Below, piece after piece: positions 4,491 to 7,400 of a stretch of 64,000 bases of DNA. The translations under genes and the position numbers were made by a program. The stretch comes from Saururus chinensis (taxonomy: Eukaryota; Streptophyta; Magnoliopsida; Piperales; Saururaceae): NCBI GenBank assembly GCA_035235625.1, contig CP141140.1:8452685-8516684 (forward strand), written 5' to 3'. The notes below the pieces were generated by a model, which ran no database searches, was not told the DNA's origin, and saw only the letters and a list, made by a program, of their open reading frames with translations. Position 1 is the first letter of the stretch. Every line of letters starts with the position of its first letter.

Positions 4491-7400
4491 ATGGCCATCT
4501 CCGCCGATGCTCGGTTCTCGCTGTCGGCCGCAGGCCATTTGCGCGGCCAGACCAGGCTGACGAGTAGGAAGGGGAAGCTAGCTCCGGCATTCATAGATGG
4601 GGAGCTGATGGGCAAGAAGGTGAAGGGCGACACTACAAGAACCAGCAGGGTCGACAGCAGAGCGGGCCAAAGCTATGTGTGCATGTCCATTGCTACGAAC
4701 ATCGCTCCGGAGACCAAGGTACGTGAGTGTCACTTCTCTTGTTATCTGCAATTCTCCTATCATTCTTCCCCTCCAGGCTCCAGCAGAGAGAGAGAGACGT
4801 GACATCACCGTAGACCGTACGGTAGATGGCTACATGGGCCTAAACTAGGTGGTTAGATTTCTGATTTTTCGCAATTTTGGGCCATTCCAGTGAATGAGTT
4901 CCTTGCCAATTCTCATCTAAAATCTAAACCGATAGAGTGGGTCCCCCTGTTACATCAAAGATTCACTTGATGGGCTCTCGTTTGAAGATGGACAAGGGTA
5001 GATTTGTCTAGCTAGTTACACATGGGCCGACAATCACTACCCAGCCTATACGACAGAGCACATTTTGGGCCCTTGAGCGATGCAGGAATGAGGCCCATAT
5101 TGAGTTCAGACCGTTGCCGGCAGCCGGGGTCGGCTAGGCTGAGACGGGTGTGTATTGTGTTGAGCAGAGTGAAGTTTCAAAGTTTCGTTACTTTCGTATC
5201 GTAAACTGTGGCGGCAAATGTTGACGGTGGAAAGGTTGTGCTTTGCAGTTGAGGGATTTGGAGATGGAAAGAAGGAATCCTCGGACGGTTGCGGCAATTA
5301 TATTGGGAGGTGGTGCTGGCACTCGTCTCTTTCCGCTCACCAAAACCAGAGCCAAACCCGCTGTAAATCCTCTCTCTTTAATGATGTCAGATATGTAAAT
5401 GCTTAAAGTTTGCCAAATTTTCATTATTTGCTTTTCTATAACCTTCTGAATCAATGACGTATAGTAAGGTCAGCAATGTCAATATCAGCTTTTAAAGCAT
5501 TGAAGTAAGTGACCTTGTATCTTGTATGTCGCAGGTGCCCATAGCAGGAGCATATAGGCTCATTGACGTTCCGATGAGCAACTGTATTAACAGTGGCATC
5601 AACAAAGTTTACATTCTTACTCAGTTCAACTCTGCCTCACTCAACAGGCATCTGGCTCGCGCATACGACTTTGGCAACGGAGTTAACTTTGGAGATGGCT
5701 TTGTTGAAGTATATATATATATATTTTTGTATTTTGTGTATTTTATATCTAGTAAAGTTCCAATGATGACATCCGAGTAGCTTGTTAAAGGGATTTGCAC
5801 ACCAATGTTTCATGAGTCACCTATTTGAGCTGCATTACAATATAAAGGGTTTTGGACATGCCATCGAGCTCACAACAGGTAGCAATTAGCTGTGTGATGA
5901 AGCTTTTTATAGACACTAGCTTCAGTGACGATAAGCATGTTCAGAACTTCTTGTTATCAAATGGTTGAATTATATGGATCTACTTTGATTCTTGGTTTGT
6001 TTCATTGAACAAGTCCTTTCCGGCACCCACAATTTTATTGATGGAATACCGGTCCTTCGGAAGAATGGCTTTCACATGTTCATGATGGCTATCAAACAAC
6101 TCCACATTCCATAATGACATTTGCCGATGTTCAGTTCATCTCTGTATATGCAGAATTTCTTGGGGAAAACCATTCTTGCCTTACTGTTTCAGTTTGAAAA
6201 CTCAGTCTTCAGTATATTTTCACTCATTAAGCTTCTCAATTTATTTACTTCAGGTCCTAGCTGCCACTCAAACCCCAGGAGAGGCAGGGAAGAGGTGGTT
6301 TCAGGGTACTGCAGATGCTGTGAGACAGTTTCATTGGCTTTTCGAGGTATCACAGTTGCTATGATTAATTGCTTGCTCAGGATACATCAGTGCTCCACAT
6401 GTAGACAATCAGATTTAAAGAATAGAAATCGAGATCAAATGGCTAGAAATTAGGCATAGGGAGTATTTGTATTACAAAGGAATGCCACCTCACCAAATAG
6501 TGGTTAGAAATATTGGGGTGTAAACATTAGTTGATTCTTCACTACTTTCTTTCCATATTACAATTGGCAAGTTGCAAGAGGTCAGCTAGAAGAAGCCGTT
6601 ATAAACTTATAGCCTTTTGTATTAGCATTTTGGCATTTTCATCACTATTCATTGTGTGACTTGTGTTATAAGTGTAGGACGCTAGAAGTAAGGAGATCGA
6701 GGATGTGTTGATTCTCTCTGGAGATCATTTATACCGTATGGACTATATGGACTTCGTTCAGGTGCCTTATATATGCCTATTATCATAATTATTGGAACTT
6801 AATTAAGATGCTTAAGTCACTTGTGTAAGATAACCAAGCTTCCTAAAAGCTCGAGCTGTTAGGAAGAGGAAATCTTATCTCTTTCTTTTATAATCTAACA
6901 CCCCCCCTTACGTGCAAGTCCACCAAGTGCGGCACGTGGAACATAATTAGGGTATAAATGCCTCCAACGAGACTTGAACCCAAGACCTCCTATAACCTGG
7001 AGCTTTGATACCATGTAAGATAACTAAGTTTCCCAACAGCTCGAGCTATTAGGAAGAGGAAATCTTATCTCTTTCTTTTATAATCTAACAACTTGTTCAT
7101 CTTCAGAATCATCGGGAAAGTGGTGCTGATATTTCAATCTCGTGCTTGCCCATGGATGATAGGTAATTGATGCATTTATTCACTTCCCTGGTTGAAAATG
7201 CCAGCATGGCATTTTTTTTGTTGTACTTTACAAAATCGTGATTCCATCAACTGATCCGCATCAATCATGTAGCTCTAAGCCTAAAATTTTTCTGATTCCA
7301 CATTTTATACTATGTAAAAACGTTCAGACAATTGTAACATCTAAAGTTGGATGTTCTTTCTATGGCAGCCGTGCATCTGATTTTGGATTGATGAAGATAG

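What the first reader, a model, noticed from the sequence alone, without database searches (positions are those of the whole stretch)
6824..7106. A 267 bp miniature LTR element appears to supply the 3' splice site signals of AGPase intron 5
The element has 77 bp LTRs, a Met-tRNA primer site, a purine tract and a perfect ACTTG duplication. It ends 16 bp before exon 6. Its terminal sequence TCTCTTTCTTTTATAATCTAAC therefore forms nearly all of the pyrimidine tract and contains CTAAC, a plant branch-point consensus, about 18 nt from the AG. An inserted transposon seems to have replaced the original branch point without breaking the gene. Elements this small are rarely described at all.
Basis: partly seen in the sequence, partly recalled or inferred. 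Interest (0 to 1): 0.75.

Follow-up and report, generated by a model that had tools for sequence, protein, structure and literature searches.

The report
Tiny intronic retrotransposon beside splice site
A 267-base non-coding retrotransposon of a known plant type sits backwards in an intron of a starch-synthesis gene, so close to the next exon that its end probably now serves as the branch point for splicing; the element is ordinary, and the splicing role is likely but untested.

Summary
Window 6824-7090 is a complete 267 bp element: 77 bp LTRs (72 of 77 identical), TG...CA ends, a perfect ACTTG duplication, a Met-type primer site and a purine tract. It lies in intron 5 (6762-7106) of an intact 523-codon AGPase large-subunit gene. 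The finding left out the orientation: the element is antisense to the gene. It fits the definition of a TRIM, like the published 292 bp grass SMART (FRetro129); a 233 bp TRIM is published, so it is not record-small.

The splicing idea is partly right. CTAAC (A7088, 18 nt from the 3' splice site) is the only YTRAY motif 12-51 nt from the AG, and the next AG upstream ends at 7058. Each candidate with T at -2 at a usual distance lies in the element. In the empty intron the only YTRAY is at 32 nt; the insertion moved it to about 304 nt. The pyrimidine-tract claim fails if CTAAC is the branch point: the LTR's T-rich run is then upstream of it, and 14 of the 16 bases between branch point and AG are host or target duplication. 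No transcript, orthologue or other copy could be examined.

The parts
4491..9557 (+). AGPase large-subunit gene: 15 coding exons, 523 codons, no internal stop
   Evidence: manual exon model, all 14 introns GT...AG; protein match to 9xuk_B, E 1.9e-269, query 66-523
6762..7106 (+). intron 5, GT...AG, 345 nt (73 nt without the element and one duplication copy)
   Evidence: junction supported by the protein alignment
6819..6823 (.). target duplication ACTTG, left copy
6824..7090 (-). TRIM-type non-autonomous LTR retrotransposon, 267 bp, antisense to the gene
6824..6900 (-). LTR, the element's own 3' LTR; its end also carries CTAAC (6895-6899)
6901..6909 (-). purine tract AAGGGGGGG read on the minus strand, abutting the LTR
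6968..6980 (-). GGTTCAAGTCTCG, resembles a tRNA B box (motif recalled); meaning uncertain
   Evidence: no tRNA match
7002..7013 (-). primer site TGGTATCAAAGC directly after the LTR; 11 of 12 match to the plant initiator-Met complement, which is recalled
7014..7090 (-). LTR, the element's own 5' LTR, next to exon 6
7085..7089 (+). CTAAC, candidate branch point (A7088, 18 nt from G7106)
   Evidence: motif distances in Arabidopsis from PMC5640774
7091..7095 (.). target duplication ACTTG, right copy
7091..7106 (+). the 16 non-LTR bases before exon 6, holding most of the stretch between candidate branch point and AG
7107..7162 (+). exon 6, 56 nt; skipping it gives an early stop

Best explanation
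A TRIM (small non-autonomous LTR retrotransposon, 5 bp duplication and Met-type primer site) inserted antisense into a short, about 73 nt, intron of a plant AGPase large-subunit gene, 16 nt before exon 6 counting the duplication. It moved the best old branch-point candidate (TTAAT) from 32 to about 304 nt from the acceptor. Splicing to exon 6 most likely continues because an LTR that begins TGTTAG reads CTAACA when antisense, and so places a plant-type branch consensus at the element's end, 18 nt from the AG, with a T-rich run upstream and the host tract and AG downstream. Shown: the element, its orientation, the gene model, and the motif and AG positions. Inferred: that the gene is expressed and correctly spliced, that A7088 is the branch point, and (weakly) which site served before.
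For: Structure. Gene intact and exon 6 needed: the frame is open through 15 exons; the protein aligns across the 5/6 junction without a gap; retention of intron 5, skipping of exon 6, or splicing to 6919 each give an early stop. CTAAC is the only YTRAY within 12-51 nt of the AG, and the next AG upstream is 48 nt away. YTRAY motifs in constitutive Arabidopsis introns lie 12-51 nt from the acceptor, quartiles 20, 26, 33 (PMC5640774, passages; motif matches, not mapped branch points). CTAAC with its A at 15-45 nt precedes 1.5% of 7617 AGs in the window, both strands.
Against: No transcript data. 18 nt is below the lower quartile of the Arabidopsis motif distances. Only 3 of 14 introns of this gene, this one included, have CTRAY at 15-45 nt, so the motif is not required here. 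Five of the 14 introns have an AG close before the real one (free stretches of 3, 5, 8, 12 and 12 nt), so a first-AG rule is not strict at short range. In the joined empty site two AGs (18 and 27 nt) lie between TTAAT and the acceptor, which weakens the guess about the old branch point. A7091 of the duplication is 15 nt from the AG, though it lacks T at -2. The predicted fold leaves A7088 unpaired only about half the time (0.48). The other LTR carries the same CTAAC with an AG 20 nt on (6898, 6918), a possible competitor.
Confidence: 0.7

Rival explanations
1. The branch point lies elsewhere in the same LTR: TTTAT (26 nt) or CTTAT (39 nt). For the 39 nt site the LTR's T-rich run would then be the pyrimidine tract.
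For: Both fit the looser YTNAY, with no AG in between. YTNAY at 15-45 nt is found in 11 of 14 introns of this gene.
Against: Neither is YTRAY; YTNAY stands by chance at 15-45 nt before 49.9% of 7617 AGs in the window.
Confidence: 0.2
2. The insertion harms splicing: a share of transcripts retains intron 5, skips exon 6 or uses the AG at 6918 inside the element, and the plant tolerates this. This does not exclude the best explanation.
For: LTR1 has CTAAC, then a C-rich stretch and an AG at 20 nt; the occupied intron folds strongly (z -4.17, 0 of 100 shuffles as good). PMC3281118 reports altered structure in 11 of 120 SMART genes that had an expressed counterpart (7 of 43 sorghum, 4 of 77 maize; passages).
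Against: The reading frame is intact throughout. In the same paper 36 of 43 sorghum and 73 of 77 maize genes kept their structure.
Confidence: 0.15
3. The branch point is a host site: far upstream in the old intron or within the last 16 bases, the element being neutral.
For: Distant branch points are reported for one animal gene (PMC7969005, abstract start in the listing). A7091 of the duplication is 15 nt from the AG.
Against: Host candidates with T at -2 are TTCAT at 7 nt, very near, and TTAAT at about 304 nt with many AGs between; A7091 lacks the T at -2.
Confidence: 0.06

Closest known systems
SMART / FRetro129 family of grasses (PMC3281118)
   Same: non-coding; TGT...ACA ends; 5 bp duplication; FRetro129 has 85 bp LTRs and solo LTRs of 79-87 bp against 77 bp here; complete elements average 261-284 bp per genome; TATAAAA in the LTR (here TGTTAGATTATAAAAG); genic copies mostly in introns
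   Different: sequence homology could not be tested, no SMART sequence being held; the species of the window is unknown
TRIMs in general (PMC4717578)
   Same: small LTR elements without coding sequence, enriched in or near genes; the smallest named there is 233 bp with 52 bp LTRs
   Different: the sections and passages that I saw do not report a TRIM end used as a branch point
Helenus TRIMs (PMC10886601; outline and section 3.6)
   Same: small LTR elements with tRNA-related sequence
   Different: Helenus has a tRNA-like sequence in its LTRs; here there is only a B-box-like stretch in the internal part, with no tRNA match
Antisense retroelements that supply splice signals, e.g. Alu and mouse L1 exonization (PMC3629564, PMC2176070; abstract starts in the listing only)
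   Same: the element carries splice signals that the host uses; for mouse L1 the abstract names the antisense strand
   Different: those make new exons; here an existing exon would keep its own AG and borrow only the branch point

Membership tests
TRIM | two short direct LTRs with TG...CA ends | tested here: met
   77 bp, 72 of 77 identical
TRIM | target-site duplication of 5 bp | tested here: met
   ACTTG on both sides
TRIM | primer site next to the 5' LTR and purine tract before the 3' LTR, on the same strand | tested here: met
   both on the minus strand; the tRNA complement is recalled
TRIM | no coding capacity | tested here: met
   113 bp between the LTRs, too short for retrotransposon proteins; no stop-to-stop ORF of 100 aa or more overlaps the element
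TRIM | repeated elsewhere in the genome | not testable with these tools
   no genome held; no second copy in the window
SMART (FRetro129) | sequence similarity to FRetro129 | not testable with these tools
   no reference sequence held; a text search for the LTR start found no paper with it
SMART (FRetro129) | size, LTR length, TGT...ACA ends, TATAAAA in the LTR | tested here: met
   against PMC3281118; LTR 77 bp is just under the 79-87 bp of O. brachyantha solo LTRs
Helenus | tRNA-derived sequence in the LTRs | tested here: not met
   ARAGORN finds no tRNA in the window; no tRNA family among Rfam matches up to E 5 in 6700-7200

The most novel reading that the evidence does not exclude
Small LTR elements whose LTR starts TGTTAG act, when antisense, as portable branch-point modules: each copy ends in CTAACA, here behind a T-rich run. 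That would let them land within about 20 nt of an acceptor without breaking the gene, and would help explain why such elements survive in introns. It predicts an antisense bias of copies near acceptors. This generalises from the single element seen here.
Probability: 0.25. Interest if true: 0.5.

Novelty: new member of a known kind. Interest (0 to 1): 0.3.

Why it matters
The element itself is an ordinary TRIM in an intron, the commonest genic place reported for SMARTs (PMC3281118). What would matter is the position: a transposon end that replaces a branch point while the gene's own AG stays in use would be a clean natural test of how freely plants swap branch points, and it gives a simple orientation prediction for all TGTTAG-type elements.

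Tried and rejected
Other copies: the window's own genome is not held. Seven exact-pattern scans sought relatives, six of viral contigs and one of genome contigs; six of the seven found nothing. I treated these as chance and examined none. Those collections hold viral and prokaryotic contigs, so the misses say nothing about plants.

A hairpin-plus-branch-point cassette: LTR1 folds as a good local hairpin with a free T-rich tail (z -2.92), but LTR2, the one beside exon 6, does not (z -0.18, and -1.10 with the 16 following bases). Its 28-base near-palindrome matches itself at 22 of 28 positions against 26 of 28 in LTR1. Rejected as a local device. The whole intron does fold better than each of 100 shuffles (z -4.17), largely by LTR1-LTR2 pairing; no function is claimed.

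Selection on the LTR tail: the 5 LTR differences all fall in the first 35 of 77 bases as read on the plus strand (chance 0.019, post hoc). Suggestive only.

tRNA-like internal part (Helenus type): ARAGORN found no tRNA; the three Rfam matches listed (E 2.1, 2.3, 3.1) are not tRNA families and are far below their gathering scores.

Literature: a search for branch point + TRIM element + retrotransposon + intron + plant gave 0 papers. Of the papers found (20 held, 15 listed; 16 held, 15 listed; 22 held, 12 listed), no listed title or abstract start is on a TRIM supplying a branch point. This covers only the open-licence library, these terms and the rows listed. Passages of PMC7433366, PMC10226581, PMC10575287 and PMC4598772 gave no plant branch-point distances that I could use.

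Full report
The element. Direct repeats of 77 bp at 6824-6900 and 7014-7090 match at 72 positions (4 transitions, 1 transversion). They begin TG and end CA, and ACTTG stands on both sides. Taking the best 77-base match at each offset of 80-599 in the window, this is the joint best; of the 12 best printed, 10 others start at 36464-36735, a repeat cluster, and one at 25511. Read on the minus strand, the LTR at 7090-7014 is followed at once by TGGTATCAAAGC, 11 of 12 to the initiator-Met complement that I recalled, and AAGGGGGGG abuts the other LTR. So the element runs antisense to the gene, which the finding did not state. The interior is 113 bp and non-coding. At the rate of 1.3e-8 used in PMC5437302 (passages), K2P 0.069 gives about 2.6 My, with a very rough range of 0.8-5.6 My.

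The gene. A manual model of 15 exons from 4491 to 9557 gives 523 codons with no internal stop, all 14 introns GT...AG. The protein matches a solved chloroplastic AGPase large subunit (9xuk_B, E 1.9e-269), and the alignment runs through the exon 5/6 junction without a gap. Intron 5 is 6762-7106. Retention, exon 6 skipping, or splicing to 6919 each give an early stop, so a working protein needs the junction at 7107.

The splice signals. Within 60 nt of the AG the candidates with T at -2 are ATTAG 55, CTTAT 39, TTTAT 26, ATAAT 23, CTAAC 18, TTCAT 7 and TTCAG 1. Only CTAAC is YTRAY. The next AG upstream ends 48 nt away, at 7058 inside the LTR. PMC5640774 (passages) gives YTRAY motif distances in constitutive Arabidopsis introns of 12 to 51 nt, quartiles 20, 26, 33, found the motif in 59.8% of them, and quotes 33-34 as the mean of 19 proven branch points. 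So 18 nt is allowed but short. In the joined flanks, 73 nt long, the only YTRAY is TTAAT at 32 nt, with AGs at 27 and 18 nt between it and the acceptor; GTCAC at 15 nt is another, weaker candidate. With the 272 bases added TTAAT is about 304 nt away. Which site served before is thus only a guess. Between A7088 and the AG lie 16 bases, 12 of them pyrimidines; 14 of the 16 are target duplication or host. The T-rich LTR run lies upstream of CTAAC.

How strong is this? CTAAC with its A at 15-45 nt precedes 1.5% of 7617 AGs in the window (both strands, real acceptors not removed), CTRAY 10.9%, YTNAY 49.9%. In this gene, this intron included, 2 of 14 introns have CTAAC there, 3 of 14 CTRAY and 11 of 14 YTNAY. 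The motif is uncommon by chance but not needed by most introns of the gene. The stronger argument is positional: each T-at-minus-2 candidate between 12 and 51 nt lies in the element. One host A, 7091 of the duplication, is 15 nt from the AG but lacks that T. Against a strict rule, five of the 14 introns have an AG 3-12 nt before the real one, so scanning is not first-AG at short range.

A built-in feature. Because the LTR begins TGTTAG, each antisense copy ends CTAACA. Both LTRs carry the motif, and LTR1 has an AG 20 nt after it (A6898, G6918): a predicted rival acceptor that RNA-seq could show.

What is known. PMC3281118 (outline, sections 5, 6 and 15, passages) describes the 292 bp FRetro129 with 85 bp LTRs. 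Its homologues (SMARTs) lay in introns in 74 of 262 cases in rice, 62 of 99 complete ones in sorghum and 204 of 361 in maize, and 11 of 120 genes with an expressed counterpart had altered structure. PMC4717578 (outline, sections 6 and 7 as numbered by the tool, passages) lists 156 TRIM families in 43 of 48 genomes, the smallest element being 233 bp. So neither the size nor the intronic place is new. I found no report of a TRIM end used as a branch point in the searches, within the rows that they listed.

Limits. No plant sequence collection, transcript or orthologue was available; the species is not known; SMART membership by sequence is untested.

Noticed in passing
6824-6900 and 7014-7090: Each LTR holds a 28-base near-palindrome (26 of 28 and 22 of 28 self-matches), so the two LTRs can pair in the intron RNA; the occupied intron folds better than each of 100 shuffles.
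   Followed up: partly
6895-6918: CTAAC, a C-run and an AG 20 nt on form a possible competing acceptor inside the element.
   Followed up: partly
36464-36923: A cluster of similar 77-base segments at offsets of 105-330, perhaps a diverged tandem array.
   Followed up: no
6968-6980: B-box-like GGTTCAAGTCTCG in the element's interior on the minus strand; mean 0.00 expected over 100 shuffles of the window (pattern chosen after seeing the sequence), but no tRNA match.
   Followed up: partly
9791-10240 (-), 18073-18546 (+), 23345-24019 (+), 31977-32438 (-), 53697-54242 (+), 55229-55624 (+): Other genes by Pfam in six translated stretches: helicase C-terminal, GHMP kinase C-terminal, short-chain dehydrogenase, aluminium-activated malate transporter, PMR5N, PC-esterase.
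   Followed up: no
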